37,084 bases of DNA, taken from positions 1-37,084 of IMG/VR virus record IMGVR_UViG_3300006931_000022. One strand, given 5' to 3'. Source of the DNA: a virus. A program made the position numbers and the translations under genes. Position 1 is the stretch's first letter; each line of letters starts with the position of its first letter. Under the pieces are notes generated by a model. The model saw only the letters and a program-made list of their open reading frames with translations, ran no database searches and was not told where the DNA came from. This document shows positions 6,610-26,789 of this stretch, piece by piece.

Positions 6610-7487
6610 TGGCAACGAATAATGCGATAAATAACAGTACTAAAATCACTACTTTTAACGCGAGCGGCACCTTCACAAAGGACTCTCGCGCGCAGCTTAT
6701 CACCGTGTATATCTTCAACGGAGGTGGCGGAGGGGGAAGTGGTCGCCAGGGAGCTTCTACTGCCGCTGGGGGCGGTGGTGGTGGAGCAGGGGGTGGCTGC
6801 GTCTTTATGCAGTCTCCTGCTAATTACTTCGACACGTCAGTTTCTGTGACTATAGGGGCTGGCGGCGGTGGTGGAGCAACTCAGGGCGGCGCGGGAACTA
6901 ATGGCAACCCTGGAAACCCCGGAACTCGATCATCCATAGGAAATATTATTGGCGCTGCTCAAACTTCGAGCGGCGGTGGCGGAGGAACCACTACGACTGT
7001 ATCTGGAGGAACCTCGGTGGGTGGGCGCCTGATGTGGGCTGGCGCTTTCGGTACTAACCCCGGGGGAACAGGCAGTAACGTTGCTTCGACCACGCCTTCA
7101 GGAACCCCTATAACGTCTGGCGGAGGCGGCGGAAGCGGTGCGGATTCAGGAACCGCTCGCCAGGCAGCGAACGGACAGCCCGTCACGCAACTTGATACCA
7201 CTACTGTCGTTATAGCGGGCGGCGCGGGTGGCATAGAAGGCGGCTCAAGTATTGATGGCCTTATCGGTAACGGCATAACCGGGTCCGTAAGCCTCGGATG
7301 GATTTCTGGAGGATCTGGCGGTGGCGGCGGCGGTGGTCAGCACACAGGACTCGTTGGGGGAGTGGGCGGGAAGGGTGGCTCTCCTGGCGGTGGCGGCGGT
7401 GGTGGAGGCGGCTCTATCACAGGAACCACTTCCGGCGCTGGAGGAGATGGTGCGGATGGCCAGATTATCGTCGTTGAACACTTCTAG
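6609..7487 (+). CDS. polyglycine-rich tail adhesin
   Basis: This is a 292-aa protein. An N-terminal beta strand region (TTFNASGTFTKD, ITVYIFNGGGGG) is followed by many runs of 4-9 glycines separated by short loops. The protein ends in IIVVEHF. This resembles the glycine-rich domains of phage tip adhesins, where glycine runs pack as polyglycine II helices and the loops between them bind the receptor. The variable loops (for example GTNPGGTGSN, DSGTARQAANG) would then set host range. The start overlaps the previous stop (TAATG) and has a poor ribosome site of its own, so translation is probably coupled. It is a tail tip protein by composition; the receptor is unknown. Confidence 0.75.
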   Translation: MATNNAINNSTKITTFNASGTFTKDSRAQLITVYIFNGGGGGGSGRQGASTAAGGGGGGAGGGCVFMQSPANYFDTSVSVTIGAGGGGGATQGGAGTNGNPGNPGTRSSIGNIIGAAQTSSGGGGGTTTTVSGGTSVGGRLMWAGAFGTNPGGTGSNVASTTPSGTPITSGGGGGSGADSGTARQAANGQPVTQLDTTTVVIAGGAGGIEGGSSIDGLIGNGITGSVSLGWISGGSGGGGGGGQHTGLVGGVGGKGGSPGGGGGGGGGSITGTTSGAGGDGADGQIIVVEHF

Positions 7488-7495
7488 GAGAGGCT

Positions 7496-7681
7496 ATGTA
7501 TAGATACGCACTAATAGACGCGGATAATGTAGTAACGGGCGTAGTAATCTGGGATGGAGTCTCGCAATGGGCGCCCCCAGCTGGTCTACAGGCAGTTCGA
7601 GGATCTAATCGCGCAGAGGTGGGGTATGTATATGACCCTGCCAGCGATTTATTCTCAGCTCCCATTCAGGAGGGTCAATAA
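7496..7681 (+). CDS. small protein near fibres, possible fibre-assembly accessory
   Basis: This is a 61-aa protein with AGGAG before the ATG. It begins YRYALIDADNVVTGVVIWDG and ends VGYVYDPASDLFSAP. Short proteins of this pattern occur beside phage fibre genes and resemble the N-terminal part of tail fibre assembly proteins. The evidence is the pattern and the position between two fibre genes. The stop overlaps the start of the next fibre gene (TAATG). A fibre-folding helper is plausible but not proven. Confidence 0.6.
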   Translation: MYRYALIDADNVVTGVVIWDGVSQWAPPAGLQAVRGSNRAEVGYVYDPASDLFSAPIQEGQ

Positions 7682-9360
7682 TGGCTACTGGTAAGAAATT
7701 AACGGGTATAAATCCCTTAGCATATATGGGTGTCGAGCCAACGGCCCCACCCCAATTAGTTGTACAACCCTTTCCCCCGACCCCGGCCGACGTACAGAAT
7801 AATAATATCGGGACACTCTGGATTGTGACGGGATCACAAGTATGGATGCTCGTATCCCTTGTAGGAAATATTGCTACCTGGGTTCAGATTTATCCATCCT
7901 TAGGGGCCGCTGCAACGTTCCCAACTGACGCGGGTATCGCTGTCCCAGTGGCAGACGTGCTTAATGTCCTGGGCGGCACTAATATAAATACCGCAGGTGC
8001 GGGCAACACTCTCACCATTAATCTCGATGACAGCATCGTGGTTAATGATTTCGAGGCGACGGGTAATGCAGTTATCTTTTCTGGCCTGGGCGCTACTGGC
8101 GTTCTTCAGATAGATGGCGGCGGTAACGCGAGCGCAAGTAAGGGCGACGATGGTGAAGTACTGATAGGCTCTACTGCGGGCGCTCCTGCATGGGCCAATA
8201 TCACGTCGATCGACACCACCGTTACCATAACGAATGGTCCAAACACAATAGATTTATCTGCTGCGGGCATGGCAGGCATCGTAACACTTGATGGCGATGT
8301 AGGTTCGGCTACTGGCGCGACAGTGACGATTGCTGGAGGAAGTAATATAAACACTTCCGCAGCGGCTGCGACAGTCACCGTTAATCTAGACGACACCGTT
8401 TCTATTTCTGGAAGCATGACTGCTGGGACGGGCTTCTCTGCGACTACGGGCGATGTTGATATACTCGCAGGCAGCCTTACGCTGCCAGAGAGTAATGCGG
8501 CGCTCACAGAGGGATTAATTACTCTCAACGGAGTTCTTTTCCTACATTCGGGTAATTCTACTGCCAATGCGAACGCATTTGGTGGCGGATCGGGAGATCC
8601 ATCGGTTATAGATCCTGCGGCAACTGCCAACACAGGATTCGGTTCCGGGGCTATTAACAGCTTAACGACAGGCACTTCGAATATAGCCATTGGTGCGAAT
8701 GCGATAGAAGATCTCACGACTGGTAGCCAGAACGTGGGAATCGGGGTCGGGTCAGGCGCCGCGGGCCTTGATACTGGTTCTAATAACACCATGATTGGGT
8801 ACGCGACAGGACAGTCGTATGCGGGCGCAGAGTCTAATAACATTCTGATCGGCTCACTGGTCGACGGCACCCTGGGAGAATCTAACGCGACCCACATCGG
8901 CCGCGAAGGGGTAACCACTCTCTGTACCATTGCAGGCATCTTTGGCATCACGATTGGTGGCACCGGCATTCCGGTGAACGTAGATAATACGGGTCAGTTG
9001 GGTACGGTTGTTTCCTCTCGCCGCTTTAAGGATAACATCGAAGATATGGGTGCTATTAGCAATGTGATCCATAATCTCCGTCCCGTTACCTTCACGATGA
9101 AGGCTGATAAAGAGAAGCGCAGACAGATGGGACTCATCGCTGAAGAAGTTGAGAAGGTCATGCCAGAGCTCGTGGTCCATAATGAGGGCCAAGCGCTTAC
9201 GGTACGATACGACGCGCTTCCCGTGCTGATGCTCAATGAGCTACAGATGGCCTTCAGGGTCATCGATATGCACGAGCGCACCATCTTCGGCCTCGCTGAG
9301 AAGGTGGCTGAGCTTGAGCGCAAAGTGGGAACGCTCTCCAAATTAGCCATGTGTGATTAG
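7681..9360 (+). CDS. tail fibre with C-terminal S74 intramolecular chaperone
   Basis: This is a 559-aa fibre. Residues 1-75 are the N-terminal module shared with the 1130 and 9369 proteins (GINPLAYMGVEP..., IGTLW, ATWVQIYP). The middle has YadA-like head repeats (SNIAIGANAI, QNVGIGVG, NNTMIGYATG) and the segment TIAGIFGITIGG...VDNTGQLGT. From about residue 445 the peptidase S74 chaperone domain follows (SSRRFKDNI, then RQMGLIAEEVEKVMPELV). Family members cut themselves off after the fibre trimer has folded, using a Ser/Lys pair; here Ser445 and Lys450 fit that spacing. The mature fibre would lose about 115 C-terminal residues. Confidence 0.9.
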   Translation: MATGKKLTGINPLAYMGVEPTAPPQLVVQPFPPTPADVQNNNIGTLWIVTGSQVWMLVSLVGNIATWVQIYPSLGAAATFPTDAGIAVPVADVLNVLGGTNINTAGAGNTLTINLDDSIVVNDFEATGNAVIFSGLGATGVLQIDGGGNASASKGDDGEVLIGSTAGAPAWANITSIDTTVTITNGPNTIDLSAAGMAGIVTLDGDVGSATGATVTIAGGSNINTSAAAATVTVNLDDTVSISGSMTAGTGFSATTGDVDILAGSLTLPESNAALTEGLITLNGVLFLHSGNSTANANAFGGGSGDPSVIDPAATANTGFGSGAINSLTTGTSNIAIGANAIEDLTTGSQNVGIGVGSGAAGLDTGSNNTMIGYATGQSYAGAESNNILIGSLVDGTLGESNATHIGREGVTTLCTIAGIFGITIGGTGIPVNVDNTGQLGTVVSSRRFKDNIEDMGAISNVIHNLRPVTFTMKADKEKRRQMGLIAEEVEKVMPELVVHNEGQALTVRYDALPVLMLNELQMAFRVIDMHERTIFGLAEKVAELERKVGTLSKLAMCD

Positions 9361-22368: not shown

Positions 22369-22435
22369 GCCTTGCATAGTCAAATGACTACCCGATTATG
22401 CAAGGCAGGCCCCGGACTGATCATCCGGGGTTTTT
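22369..22435 (+). terminator. double hairpin with rho-independent terminator
   Basis: A 10-bp perfect inverted repeat GCCTTGCATA/TATGCAAGGC (22369-22378 with 22397-22406) is followed directly by CCCCGGA-7 nt-TCCGGGG (22410-22430) and TTTTT. The second hairpin is a textbook terminator. The stop codon of the convergent CYTH gene (22434-22436) lies in the T-run. Confidence 0.8.
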
Positions 22436-23081
22436 ATTTAAAGGGAATCTCTGGGAAGTCCAACTTAGTAAGCCGCTCTATCTTATTAAATTCTTCTCTT
22501 GTCATATTATATTCCTGGGCGTAGATATCGGGTATATCGCCAAGGAATCGCTTCGGAAGCTTCAGTTCTACCTCAAGCATATCTATCATATCCGCGCTTC
22601 CCCGGAGAACTTCTATCTCTACTATGGGCTTTAATCCGGGCCAGTAATCAATGGTTATCGCGCTACAATCTGCATCTGCAGACCTCATGCCATCCACAGT
22701 GCGCACGCAGCACCACGTTTCCCGCTCATTTTCCTGATAGGATCCTCTACCAAGCCCGAGAGCGCGGAATAATGGCGCCATTGCATCAAGCTTCTTACCC
22801 TGTATACTCACGGTATGCTCATAGGTTCCATCAATAGACGATGCGTCCTTTACGCATTTCAGGGTAAACTCTGTGTGTCGAGGCACTTCCCTTACGCGGA
22901 AGAACTTGCCTATCGATGGGTCTATATCCCACGTAATCCTGCGCAATAGTCTTCTTGGATCTCGCTGAAAAATGCGAAATCCTTCTCCCTTCCCGGACTT
23001 CTGCTCACTGAGCCGCTGTAACCTATCTCTTACGACACCCACATTAACTGCATAATACCTAGCCTCTAATTCTACTTTCAT
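22434..23081 (-). CDS. CYTH-domain protein (class IV adenylyl cyclase/triphosphatase-like)
   Basis: This is a 215-aa product from the ATG after GGGGTGAAT; a GTG at 23087 is an alternative. It has the features of a CYTH triphosphate tunnel: the N-terminal VELEARY (Glu4, Glu6, Arg8; the usual motif is ExExK), FFRVRE (Arg62, Arg64), FTLK (Lys75), NERETW (Arg120), ITIDYWPGL (Asp145) and IVEIE (Glu155, Glu157). The family includes class IV adenylyl cyclases, thiamine triphosphatases and polyphosphatases; all act on triphosphates with metal ions. The Lys to Arg change in the first motif leaves activity open. It is divergent from the 487-aa gene at 23228. A metabolic or signalling enzyme carried by a phage is unusual. 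Confidence 0.8.
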   Translation of the reverse strand: MKVELEARYYAVNVGVVRDRLQRLSEQKSGKGEGFRIFQRDPRRLLRRITWDIDPSIGKFFRVREVPRHTEFTLKCVKDASSIDGTYEHTVSIQGKKLDAMAPLFRALGLGRGSYQENERETWCCVRTVDGMRSADADCSAITIDYWPGLKPIVEIEVLRGSADMIDMLEVELKLPKRFLGDIPDIYAQEYNMTREEFNKIERLTKLDFPEIPFK

Positions 23082-23097
23082 ATTCACCCCGGATGGA

Positions 23098-23227: not shown

Positions 23228-24691
23228 ATGTATTACTCTTACCGAAGTGCGATGGCGCTCGTTTTCTTAGCGCATCCGTCACTTCATACCTCTTTGCGCA
23301 AAAACTGCGCCCGATTCTCCGATAGTATTACACAATCGCTCGGAATCGATCAAATTCCCGTCCAGGCAGATGCCTATCTCCTCTTTAAGCGTGCAGCACG
23401 CCTTAAGGGCATAGAAGTCTGTATGCCACAGGACGAATTCTCCCATATCTACCGCCTTGAGCGCATGTTTAAGGCCTCCGATATTATAAAAAACCGAACC
23501 GGATTCATTCGGGGTAACTCTTCCGCCGCGATCGTACACCACCGTCTCGCTTCCTCCCTCCTCACTGCCCCTGATGCGCCCTCGGCCATCGAGCGCTGGC
23601 GGCGAGTCGATGCCGAGTCTGGCGCAGATCAGAAGTGGCAGGAGTACCAAGCGGTCTCCGAGGCTAGCTCAGCAGATATCGTGGCAATGCACAGTGCTAT
23701 CCAGGCGTCCGACGCCGTGTCTGAACACGTAGTGCTTCCCGAACTAGCGGTCAGAATCTACGGACCGTCAGCGGGTAGCCATAGGGCGTGCGACGATCGT
23801 CAGCTTGCGCAGAAACCACACCCGACAAGGACATTGGATTACTCCGCGAAGCATGGTCTCAAGGTTGAAATTCCTGCGCATAAGTTCTCACAGATCCAAG
23901 AGGTGGCACATATGAGCACACCGCTCATCGAGAACCTGAAGAATCGTAGATTCCTCACGATTAGTGGATTGCGTAACTCGAAGGTCTCCCTCCTCGTGCA
24001 TGACCACTTCGACCACGCGGTTACTTTCAAGTTGCTGCGCGACGCAGGCATTATGAAGCGGTATGAGCATTTTCTGAGCCAGGTTGGCAATCCCCAGAAT
24101 TGCGACATCCTCAGCCGCGAGGGCGAGTTGATCGCTTCCATATCGTATGACTATCGCTTCACCAGCTATCCTCGCTTCAATCAGCTCTCACTCGTGTCAT
24201 ATGATGACATCGTGAAGATGTTGCGAGCGAATCCATCCCTCTCTCCTAATCAGTCAAGCGCCTTGGCGATCTGTCAGGAGCGTTTAAATGACCCAGAATT
24301 CACGAAGCGACTGCCAGTGGTAGTAAGCGGTGTCTATACCGAAATGATGCAGCAGCGGGTGAAAAATGGGGTCATTAAGACTGTGCAGGGAAATAAGCAA
24401 GTTGATGCCTTGAGACTCACAGATCCTGAGTACCTCGCACTCATAGTTGAGACCCTCGACTGTATGTATAAGAACCGTCCCCATGTGAAGAAGCAGCTCC
24501 TAAATACACAGCTTATGGTAGAAGATGTGCTCCACCAGGCGCTCGAGGCTGATGGCATGGATCTAGTGATCACGGTATCAGGTCAGACAGTTGATGAATT
24601 TACCCGACCTTCTCGAGTTCCCGAGCATAGAGCTCGCTGGATCGAGAACAATCTGGGCGCGATATCTGACAGAAATCCTGTAATAGGATAG
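23228..24691 (+). CDS. 487-aa protein of unknown function with HxHxDH motif
   Basis: This single gene has its own promoter and a strong terminator. The ATG has only a weak ribosome site (AGAAGG 12 bp upstream); a second ATG at 23252 is possible. It has no signal peptide or membrane segment. The most striking motif is VHDHFDHA (His258, His260, Asp262, His263). This fits HxHxDH, the metal-binding signature of metallo-beta-lactamase-fold hydrolases. However, the usual N-terminal strands and Asp before it, and the later His/Asp ligands, are not obvious. The segment after it (VGNPQNCDILSREGELIASISYDYR in pieces) looks conserved in style. No family is assigned. Autonomous transcription suggests cargo, such as a defence or anti-defence gene. 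Confidence 0.7.
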   Translation: MYYSYRSAMALVFLAHPSLHTSLRKNCARFSDSITQSLGIDQIPVQADAYLLFKRAARLKGIEVCMPQDEFSHIYRLERMFKASDIIKNRTGFIRGNSSAAIVHHRLASSLLTAPDAPSAIERWRRVDAESGADQKWQEYQAVSEASSADIVAMHSAIQASDAVSEHVVLPELAVRIYGPSAGSHRACDDRQLAQKPHPTRTLDYSAKHGLKVEIPAHKFSQIQEVAHMSTPLIENLKNRRFLTISGLRNSKVSLLVHDHFDHAVTFKLLRDAGIMKRYEHFLSQVGNPQNCDILSREGELIASISYDYRFTSYPRFNQLSLVSYDDIVKMLRANPSLSPNQSSALAICQERLNDPEFTKRLPVVVSGVYTEMMQQRVKNGVIKTVQGNKQVDALRLTDPEYLALIVETLDCMYKNRPHVKKQLLNTQLMVEDVLHQALEADGMDLVITVSGQTVDEFTRPSRVPEHRARWIENNLGAISDRNPVIG

Positions 24692-24720
24692 TATATATAC
24701 GCGCTTCTGCGCTGCTTAGG

Positions 24721-24753
24721 TAAGAACCCCCGACTCAACATCGGGGGTTCTTA
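24721..24753. terminator. strong bidirectional terminator
   Basis: TAAGAACCCCCGA (24721-24733) and TCGGGGGTTCTTA (24741-24753) form a perfect 13-bp stem with a 7-nt loop. It lies between convergent genes and has T-containing sequence on both strands, so it can serve both directions. Confidence 0.85.
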
Positions 24754-24785
24754 CTGTTCTTTCCTAGAACGCACATGGTTCTATA

Positions 24786-25040
24786 CTACCAAGGACTCCA
24801 TCCTTCGTCTCTCTTCTGCTTTCTGAACTTCGGGACATACATCTCAAGAAGCCGCAGGAGTATCGGCATGATAAATATGGCGAAGAAAAGAGCCGGAAGG
24901 GTGCTCAGAGAGGTGAAGTAATGCGCTGGAAGTGGCTCATATCCAAATAGGAGTCGTACATTAGAAGTCACGATGAGCCCTAGATACCATCCAGAAATCG
25001 ATCGCGTGCTTCTTATAATGTCCGAGATGAGCTGATCCAT
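24786..25040 (-). CDS. small membrane protein in the secreted-cargo cluster
   Basis: This is an 84-aa product from the ATG at 25040, after AAGGGAA; the ATG at 25067 lacks a ribosome site and overlaps the upstream gene. Two hydrophobic segments are visible: about residues 17-34 (SGWYLGLIVTSNVRLLFG) and 46-66 (TLPALFFAIFIMPILLRLL). A basic tail (KFRKQKRDEGW) follows. It is last in a leftward set of membrane or exported proteins, 8 bp after the stop of its neighbour. It may assist or protect against that neighbour's hydrophobic product, or be a holin-like protein. No family was recognised. Confidence 0.6.
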   Translation of the reverse strand: MDQLISDIIRSTRSISGWYLGLIVTSNVRLLFGYEPLPAHYFTSLSTLPALFFAIFIMPILLRLLEMYVPKFRKQKRDEGWSPW

Positions 25041-25048
25041 GCTTTCCC

Positions 25049-25702
25049 TTATGGAAGGAATGGACATGCGGTGAACACGGCCCAGGCGCCCATAGAGGCA
25101 GATTCAATGCCTACTACTGCGCCCGCAATGCCGCCGCCTGCTGATACGGATGCAACCACTGCCCCGCCAGCCGCTGAAGCTAATCCCAATTCAGTGATAG
25201 CGGTTCCCGCTACTGCTGCACCACCAGCTACCGCTGCTGACATGCCGCCTGCGCTTAAGAGCAACGGAGTCGCTACTGCCGCAGTCGCTGGCAATACTAC
25301 CACCGTTCCCGCCGCAGCTACTACGCCACCATAGCAGAGGCTTTTTGTAAGCCAGTACGCTATAGCTCCTGCAACTGGACCGCCACCTAACCCTTGCATA
25401 TGTGATCGCAAAGCGAAGCTCCCGTCACTTAACTTAGTAACCCCGATCCGTCCCTGTTTTAGGTAGGCGCCAAGGTTGGATTTATTAATTTTACGCAACA
25501 CTGGGTCTACATCATAGGACTCAACTTTGTGGAGCGCGTCACCCTGTCGCACATGGAAGCTCATTCCATCATGTCGAAGTGTGACGGCTCCCAATTCGTG
25601 AGACGCGATGAGGTGTTTAGCACGAATTCGTGCCATCTCAGAAGCAGAAGCGCTGCTAAGAAATAAAAGAGATATCGAAAGAAAAAGGTTGTTTTTCTTC
25701 AT
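25049..25702 (-). CDS. exported protein with Gly/Ala-rich hydrophobic domain
   Basis: This is a 217-aa product from the ATG after AAGGAAAC; upstream in-frame ATGs lack a ribosome site. A clear Sec signal peptide (basic MKKNN, hydrophobic core, cut near SSASA/SEM) precedes a compact domain of about 80 residues (AKHLIASHELGAVTLRHDG). A 100-residue stretch made almost only of Gly, Ala, Val and Ser follows (GGVVAAAGTVVVLPATAAV and on), ending CPFLP. The hydrophobic half could insert in membranes and recalls the ISG12/IFI6-type glycine-alanine proteins of eukaryotes. That likeness may be compositional only. As an exported phage-encoded protein it is a candidate host-modifying factor. Confidence 0.7.
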   Translation of the reverse strand: MKKNNLFLSISLLFLSSASASEMARIRAKHLIASHELGAVTLRHDGMSFHVRQGDALHKVESYDVDPVLRKINKSNLGAYLKQGRIGVTKLSDGSFALRSHMQGLGGGPVAGAIAYWLTKSLCYGGVVAAAGTVVVLPATAAVATPLLLSAGGMSAAVAGGAAVAGTAITELGLASAAGGAVVASVSAGGGIAGAVVGIESASMGAWAVFTACPFLP

Positions 25703-25761
25703 AGAGGTTTCCTTGTTTAGGAGAGACTGCTTTTGACTGCGCACATGCGCAATCATTCGAT

Positions 25762-25789
25762 AGTGTACACCTTTTTCGATACTCGACAA
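25762..25789 (-). promoter_or_regulatory. promoter with GTGTACAC palindrome for the exported protein
   Basis: On the minus strand TTGTCG (25784-25789), a 16-bp spacer and TACACT (25762-25767). The -10 lies inside GGTGTACAC. The RHH operon promoter has the same GGTGTACA at its -10, with the same 16-bp spacing, suggesting shared control by the RHH protein. Confidence 0.5.
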
Positions 25790-25800
25790 GCCCCCAGGCC

Positions 25801-26244
25801 CTATCTACGGCCCCTTCTATCATATGAGCACCACTCTAATACCTTATCCCAAAATGACTTCCCTGGAGGAGGAACCACAGGGATATGAGGCGCATGAATA
25901 TCGCGTCGGCTAGCCTGTCGAACAACGGGCGCAGGCGATTCTCCACGAGGATAGCTTCTTAGGCCCGGCTCATCATCATTAGCCACTTGTACCCGGATCT
26001 CATTCACAAGGGTGTCCAAATCCTGATCTATCTGCTGCGCGTCAGTTTCTTCTTCATCGAGCGAAGAATCGCTGCCCAGCGAGACGGGTGAGGCATCTGG
26101 AAGTGGATAGGTAACGATGGTTATCGGTTGCTGGGGATAGGGGACAATACTGTCCCGACGCATGGCGCGTATCTTCCAGCGTGATTCATTTTCCCCTCCT
26201 GTGGCGGTCAGCACACAGAAAAGCGCTAAAAAGAAGTACTTCAT
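25801..26244 (-). CDS. exported proline-rich protein (paralogue of 26241 product)
   Basis: This is a 147-aa product. The N-terminus is a Sec signal peptide (MKYFFLALFCVLTATGG). The mature part is polar and Pro/Asp/Glu-rich, probably disordered, with RRDSIVPYPQQP near the start and IRVQVANDDEPG later. It has a short basic C-terminus (SYDRRGRR) after FWDKVLEWC. Its ATG overlaps the upstream gene's stop (ATGA), so the two are co-translated. Both share elements (R-R-x-x-x-VPY...P-x-T and a D/E-rich terminal part), which suggests duplication. Function is unknown; export and disorder suit a surface or secreted interaction protein. Confidence 0.65.
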   Translation of the reverse strand: MKYFFLALFCVLTATGGENESRWKIRAMRRDSIVPYPQQPITIVTYPLPDASPVSLGSDSSLDEEETDAQQIDQDLDTLVNEIRVQVANDDEPGLRSYPRGESPAPVVRQASRRDIHAPHIPVVPPPGKSFWDKVLEWCSYDRRGRR

Positions 26245-26789
26245 AGTGGGGCCTCATCATCTTCCGGAACGTGAGCATTTGCGTCATCATCCATCAACCT
26301 CAGGAATACACTGCGCACCACAGCTCGTGCATGTGGATCTTCTGGCGTTACTGGTCGTGGCGATGGGCTCATATCTGCCGAGTTGGGCGAGTCTGTAGGC
26401 GGAGTCATAGGTTGGTAAGAAGAATAGGGCACAACAGCAAGCCTTCTGAAGGGGGCCCGCGGCGAACCAGGTGATGGAGTGCGAGGCATTGGCCGAGGAG
26501 AGCCTTGGCCCGGCTGCATATCGATAACAGTTGGCAGGACAACGGGCGGCAATACTGGTGCGGGAAATGAGGGGAGTGGTGGTATTGGGGGAGAATTCGG
26601 CTCCAAGAGTTGTTCTTCTGCGGCCTTCCTGCGCTGTTCTTCCTGGGCCTCGCGCTCTGCCGCGATATCTTCTATGGTAATCGATCGCGTAATGAGGCGC
26701 CGCAGGGGCGATGGCCTCCGCATGTCTTCGGCAGCCTTACAGCCTAGTACTATGAGTACCCAATTTGTGTACACAAGAAGCTTTTTCAT
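26241..26789 (-). CDS. exported proline-rich protein, possible lipoprotein
   Basis: This is a 182-aa product. The N-terminus MKKLLVYTNWVLIVLGCKAAED resembles a lipoprotein signal: a hydrophobic core ends in VLGC, so Cys17 could be lipidated, though a plain signal peptide is possible. A helical charged segment (AAEREAQEEQRRKAAEEQL) is followed by a long Pro-rich, disordered region with several PxxP motifs and SPSPRP. RLAVVPYSSYQP parallels the neighbour. Codons 5-8 contain the 12-bp palindrome TTGTGTACACAA. It is the first gene of the leftward pair and is co-translated with the next gene through an ATGA overlap. Confidence 0.65.
   Translation of the reverse strand: MKKLLVYTNWVLIVLGCKAAEDMRRPSPLRRLITRSITIEDIAAEREAQEEQRRKAAEEQLLEPNSPPIPPLPSFPAPVLPPVVLPTVIDMQPGQGSPRPMPRTPSPGSPRAPFRRLAVVPYSSYQPMTPPTDSPNSADMSPSPRPVTPEDPHARAVVRSVFLRLMDDDANAHVPEDDEAPL

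What the first reader, a model, noticed from the sequence alone, without database searches (positions are those of the whole stretch)
24786..26789. Leftward cluster of four exported or membrane proteins
Three products start with signal peptides and the fourth has two membrane segments. None resembles a virion or replication gene. The cluster lies between strong terminators and the virion operon, opposite to both. It looks like lysogenic-conversion cargo acting in the envelope or outside the cell.
Basis: partly seen in the sequence, partly recalled or inferred. Interest (0 to 1): 0.65.

Follow-up and report, generated by a model that had tools for sequence, protein, structure and literature searches.

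The report
Phage-borne swappable toxin and immunity pair
A phage of bacteria that probably live inside protists carries a small cluster of exported proteins, and two of them belong to an undescribed family, shared with Dependentiae bacteria, that looks like a secreted membrane toxin with swappable ends and a matching immunity protein.

Summary
Four leftward genes (24786-26789) encode three proteins with Sec-type signal peptides and one membrane protein, all under purifying selection. The core is the last two genes: p2 (25049-25702) is signal peptide + folded ~88-aa domain + GGG + Gly/Ala-rich glycine-zipper domain; p1 (24786-25040) is the membrane protein after it. p2 belongs to a family without Pfam, NCBIfam, PHROG or PDB match, found in 34 of 101 Dependentiae-phylum genomes, in 0 of 199 control genomes besides the control centre, and in a minority of related phages. 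In seven natural pairs the N-domain is 91-99% identical while the C-domain is unrelated or weakly similar; identity collapses at GGG in the four pairs checked, and the downstream membrane gene differs in the five pairs comparable. 48 of 78 members are followed by a short membrane gene, against 43 of 697 control genes. This is the anatomy of a polymorphic toxin with cognate immunity, nearest to Caulobacter Cdz bacteriocins but with another export route. Toxicity and immunity are inferred. Cargo acting in the envelope or outside is supported for p2/p1; 'lysogenic conversion' is not. p3 and p4 remain unexplained.

The parts
25049..25702 (-). p2: exported protein, 217 aa; signal peptide (about residues 1-20), conserved N-domain ending GGG, hydrophobic Gly/Ala-rich C-domain. 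Proposed toxin.
25379..25642 (-). p2 mature N-domain with GGG junction (88 aa); predicted as a folded alpha/beta domain (mean pLDDT 87, pTM 0.75); no clear PDB fold match
25052..25378 (-). p2 C-domain, type A (PVAGAIAYWLTKSLCYG ... FTACPFLP), 44% Gly+Ala, seven glycine-zipper-like motifs; the part that is exchanged between relatives
24786..25040 (-). p1: small membrane protein (84 aa from ATG 25040; ORF opens at 25067). Proposed immunity protein; homologous to partners following type A members in other phages and bacteria
25801..26244 (-). p3: exported acidic protein, 147 aa, conserved in L004 (98%) and L006 (45%); function unknown
26241..26789 (-). p4: exported proline-rich protein, 182 aa, conserved in L004 (95%) and L006 (63%); found only in close relatives
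24719..24755 (.). 15-bp stem terminator-like hairpin between the converging gene 23228-24691 and the cluster

Best explanation
p2/p1 is a phage-borne copy of a polymorphic, secreted, membrane-active toxin with its own immunity protein, from a family otherwise found in the bacterial phylum Dependentiae. Proposed mechanism: p2 crosses the inner membrane by Sec (inferred from the signal peptide), leaves the cell by type II secretion or on lysis (inferred; type II is the only system reported in Babela, PMC4378268), and its glycine-zipper C-domain inserts in the membrane of a competing, related bacterium, possibly after a cut at GGG (inferred). p1 in the inner membrane of the producing cell blocks the C-domain (inferred). 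The phage gains by protecting its infected cell against rivals, or by excluding cells that lack the pair, inside a shared protist host (inferred). What is shown: the modular build, the exchange of C-domains at GGG, the frequent short membrane gene downstream, the phyletic distribution and the accessory status in phages. p3 and p4 are extra exported cargo of unknown role.
For: Seven natural pairs with N-domain 91-99% identical and C-domain 15-30% identical, four of them clearly unrelated in sequence (15-18%): window/L005, L088/L046, L059/L078, L055/L026, L060 twice, L040/L061, L070/L085. In the four examined at nucleotide level identity drops at the GGG codons; where both downstream genes were identified (five pairs) they are 9-19% identical. 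48 of 78 members are followed within 60 nt by a short membrane-protein gene versus 43 of 697 control ORFs, Fisher p about 1e-30 (members are not independent). GGG at the junction in 74 of 82; glycine-zipper-like motifs in C-domains of 76 of 82. A phage with a type B member carries its own four-segment partner plus an extra type-A-like partner, E 7e-17, as expected of orphan immunity genes; one bacterial locus has two type-A-like partners in tandem (L060). 34 of 101 genomes of the Dependentiae phylum, 0 of 199 others in the control phylum apart from its centre. Precedents: Cdz (PMC5380434), polymorphic toxins (PMC3482391), prophage-encoded sublancin with its immunity protein (PMC6391423).
Against: No toxicity or protection has been measured. 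30 of 78 members have no short membrane gene by the same criterion. Partners are very divergent: one profile recognises only 15 of 49 type A loci, and L118/L013 have 74% identical C-domains but dissimilar downstream ORFs. The C-domain is modelled with low confidence. The peptidase that cuts after double glycine in class II bacteriocin exporters (C39) was not found in 101 genomes of the phylum, so the GGG may be only a linker. Export beyond the periplasm is not shown. The host is inferred from shared cargo and from terminase-like fragments beside family genes in one genome of the phylum, not from a prophage.
Confidence: 0.55

Rival explanations
1. p2 is an effector against the protist host: exported, then inserted by its hydrophobic C-domain into a host-cell membrane (vacuole or mitochondrion), like inclusion-membrane proteins of Chlamydia in principle; p1 assists its membrane passage.
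For: Dependentiae are intracellular and export many proteins (PMC6561590, PMC4378268). The cassette lies near genes for exported peptidases in some relatives: PF01828 in L008 and L009, PF03415 in L015 and beside the host copy in L018. p3 and p4 look like disordered exported proteins.
Against: An effector against the eukaryote needs no cognate membrane protein that is exchanged together with its C-domain, nor extra orphan partners.
Confidence: 0.2
2. p2/p1 is a lysis module: p2 or p1 makes the membrane lesion and the other controls its timing.
For: No endolysin or holin was recognised in the window, and at least one Dependentiae isolate is predicted to lack peptidoglycan (PMC4378268), so a pore alone might lyse it.
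Against: 12 of 17 related phage records of 34.6 kb or more have no detectable member. Family members occur on chromosomes without adjacent phage genes and in up to seven copies. Three relatives carry a short ORF that looks like a peptidase endolysin (inference from its sequence).
Confidence: 0.1
3. p2 is a surface protein anchored by its hydrophobic C-domain, and p1 is an insertion or folding partner; C-domain exchange reflects different anchoring or adhesion, not toxicity.
For: The N-domain is well folded and conserved while the C-domain is hydrophobic; small membrane partners can be insertases or chaperones.
Against: Exchange of the anchor with retention of the exposed domain is the reverse of what antigenic variation would select; orphan partners without a matching p2 are not expected.
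Confidence: 0.12

Closest known systems
Cdz contact-dependent glycine-zipper bacteriocins of Caulobacter (CdzC/CdzD with CdzI)
   Same: Hydrophobic glycine-zipper proteins encoded with a small inner-membrane immunity protein; patchy, horizontally acquired distribution (PMC5380434).
   Different: Cdz toxins are 84-86 aa with a short leader and use a type I secretion system encoded in the cluster; p2 has a Sec-type signal peptide and a folded ~88-aa N-domain, and no exporter gene adjoins it. No sequence link was tested directly.
Polymorphic toxin systems (CDI, T6SS, T7SS effectors)
   Same: Conserved N-terminal region, exchangeable C-terminal domain, cognate gene directly downstream, extra orphan partner genes.
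   Different: Much smaller, no known trafficking domain (CdiA, Rhs, LXG, PAAR), and all C-domains seen are hydrophobic; not in Pfam or NCBIfam.
Prophage-encoded sublancin with SunI (Bacillus subtilis)
   Same: A phage carrying a bacteriocin with its immunity gene as accessory cargo (PMC6391423).
   Different: Sublancin is a glycocin of a Gram-positive host and that phage is an integrated prophage, which is not shown here.

Membership tests
Polymorphic toxin-immunity systems | Conserved N-terminal region joined to exchangeable C-terminal domains | tested here: met
   Seven pairs with N-domain 91-99% and C-domain 15-30% identical; break at GGG in the four pairs checked at nucleotide level
Polymorphic toxin-immunity systems | Cognate gene directly downstream that changes with the C-domain | tested here: met
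   48 of 78 versus 43 of 697; partners 9-19% identical in the five comparable swap pairs; exceptions exist (L118/L013)
Polymorphic toxin-immunity systems | C-domain is toxic and partner neutralises it | not testable with these tools
   Needs expression
Polymorphic toxin-immunity systems | Known trafficking or toxin domain | tested here: not met
   No Pfam or NCBIfam match; so it is said to work like such systems, not to be a member of a described one
Cdz glycine-zipper bacteriocins | Extended GxxxG glycine zipper in the mature toxin | tested here: met
   Relaxed zipper motif ([GAS]xxxGxxx[GAS]) in 76 of 82 C-domains; seven in p2
Cdz glycine-zipper bacteriocins | Type I secretion genes in the cluster, short leader | tested here: not met
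   No exporter gene next to p2 in the window or in the neighbourhoods read; N-terminus is a Sec-type signal peptide plus a folded domain
Double-glycine class II bacteriocins with C39 peptidase exporter | C39 peptidase-containing exporter in the producer | tested here: not met
   PF03412 in 0 of 101 genomes of the phylum, 8 of 14 control genomes positive
Phage lysis proteins | Present in essentially all related complete phages | tested here: not met
   Detected in 5 of 17 related records of 34.6 kb or more; completeness of each record not known
ISG12/IFI6 family (PF06140), considered for the C-domain | Profile match | tested here: not met
   No PF06140 match among 11 members at E up to 1

The most novel reading that the evidence does not exclude
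A previously undescribed, Sec-exported class of polymorphic glycine-zipper toxins with cognate membrane immunity, used by intracellular Dependentiae against each other inside a protist and picked up by their phages as exchangeable weapons or exclusion modules.
Probability: 0.4. Interest if true: 0.8.

Novelty: new variant of a known kind. Interest (0 to 1): 0.62.

Why it matters
Antagonism between bacteria confined to the same protist cell is little explored, and a literature search here turned up no bacteriocin work on Dependentiae. This family offers a concrete, testable candidate weapon with matching immunity, in a phylum with few isolates, and links a very large group of mostly soil-derived phages (more than 550 capsid-bearing contig matches) to a likely host. 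The exchange at a fixed GGG also gives natural swaps with which to test which part carries the activity and which partner protects.

Tried and rejected
Pfam, PHROGs and PADLOC gave no family for p1-p4, and NCBIfam none for the p2 family; PDB sequence search of the p2 family gave nothing. Fold searches with the full model and with the N-domain alone gave no convincing match: best Z 5.0 and 3.7, Foldseek E above 0.1. I considered a ubiquitin-like N-domain because some members end RLRGGG; the predicted order of strands and helices does not resemble ubiquitin and no such match appeared. I considered an ISG12/IFI6 relationship for the C-domain; no PF06140 match. tblastn of p2 against 50,697 named phage records found nothing. 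Portal and capsid searches of 101 Dependentiae-phylum genomes were empty; terminase gave only fragments and one weak match. p4 has no host homologue. Group I introns were suspected in split capsid genes of relatives; Rfam at gathering score found none. The profile test of partner specificity was only partly informative because partners diverge fast.

Full report
What was checked. The window is a circular phage record (50-bp terminal repeat; G000 is a virus record) with terminase, portal and capsid genes. The four leftward genes exist as described. Start sites were refined to 25702 for p2 and 25040 for p1 from ribosome-binding sites. dN/dS against L004 and L006 is about 0.05-0.2 where measurable, so all four are under selection as proteins.

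Relatives. Searches of viral contigs with p2 gave phages, many of 35-40 kb, with 30-100% identical proteins. The single scan of bacterial genomes gave three loci: a Candidatus Dependentiae genome (L018), a further genome that fell in the same phylum group (L017), and a small plasmid-like contig of a MAG labelled Proteobacteria (L016). In L017 and L018 the p2 homologue lies among ordinary chromosomal genes and is followed by a small membrane-protein gene, as in the window. Across the phylum of L018, 34 of 101 genomes have the family, up to seven copies each. In 200 genomes of the phylum of L016 only the centre itself matched.

Anatomy. Members share a signal peptide, an N-domain of about 85 aa and a run GGG, followed by one of at least two hydrophobic Gly/Ala-rich C-domain types: A (PxSGAIAYWxTKxLCYG ... 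FLP or PTP) and B (GxTxGFxxGKFxVxFVGHGAI ... ATGPV). The N-domain is predicted with good confidence, the C-domain not. No fold match was found, which does not show that the fold is new.

Exchange. Among all pairs of members, seven have N-domains 91-99% identical but C-domains only 15-30% identical. Five of the pairs lie within one bacterial genome each, one is between two bacterial genomes, and one is between phages (window and L005). In the four pairs examined at nucleotide level, identity is 77-100% up to the GGG codons and near chance from 30 nt after them. Where both downstream genes could be identified (five pairs) they are 9-19% identical. In three of the seven pairs the residual C-domain identity of 25-30% may reflect shared composition or distant relationship. 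Short membrane genes follow 48 of 78 members, against 43 of 697 other ORFs; the members are not independent, so the p-value overstates the evidence. A related phage with a type B member carries its own four-segment partner and in addition a type-A-like partner.

Interpretation. These features together are those of polymorphic toxins with cognate immunity proteins (PMC3482391). The hydrophobic zipper C-domain and small membrane partner resemble Cdz bacteriocins (PMC5380434), but the export route differs: no type I exporter adjoins the genes and the C39 peptidase is absent from the phylum sample. Babela is reported to have only type II secretion (PMC4378268), which would fit Sec-exported proteins; this is inference. 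Activity, immunity and target are untested.

Role in the phage. The cassette is accessory: 5 of 17 related records of 34.6 kb or more have it. The region between portal and scaffold genes is empty or holds other genes in relatives, and the cassette can be in either orientation or elsewhere. No integrase was recognised and no integrated relative was found, so the term lysogenic conversion is not supported; a benefit during a lytic or carrier-state infection, such as excluding rivals from the same protist, is the more cautious reading. The host assignment rests on the shared cargo and on terminase-like fragments beside family genes in G006; it is likely but not proven.

p3 and p4. Both are exported and conserved in the closest relatives. 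p4 is found in five contigs only and in none of the 101 genomes. In other phages of the group different exported proteins accompany p2. Their role is open.

Noticed in passing
L008:1877-2719, L009:6961-7806: Related phages carry an exported peptidase of Pfam PF01828 (Peptidase_A4, the eqolisin family) close to the p2 cassette; other relatives (L112, L114, L118) have similar-looking ORFs.
   Followed up: partly
L015:7942-9270 (-), L018:10545-11963 (-): A clostripain-family (PF03415) exported peptidase adjoins the p2-family gene both in a phage and in a Dependentiae chromosome.
   Followed up: partly
L218 (reverse complement, 6815-8711): A related phage appears to encode GroES- and GroEL-like proteins next to its scaffold gene.
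   Followed up: no
L120, L114, L112, L008: The major capsid gene appears split into pieces by intervening sequence, several pieces ending in a similar tail (YKSSLIDLE..A); no Rfam group I intron reached the gathering score.
   Followed up: partly
L015:11491-15093: The terminase ORF is 1200 aa and contains an intein-like insertion (CVSPNTLVITENG...).
   Followed up: no
L066/L034, G006:C4 9241-10076: Terminase N-terminal fragments sit beside, and in one case fused to, p2-family C-domain sequence on a contig of the Dependentiae phylum; likely a phage remnant.
   Followed up: partly
L016: A 6.1-kb plasmid-like contig with a replication protein carries several N-domain pieces.
   Followed up: partly
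L218, L223, L225: Short ORFs resembling M15-type endolysins lie after the scaffold gene in relatives; none was found in the window.
   Followed up: partly
window 23228-24691 (+), 22434-23087 (-): A 487-aa and a 217-aa protein of unknown function next to the cluster; both have counterparts in L004, and part of the 487-aa protein was seen in L006. No family matched above cut-off.
   Followed up: no
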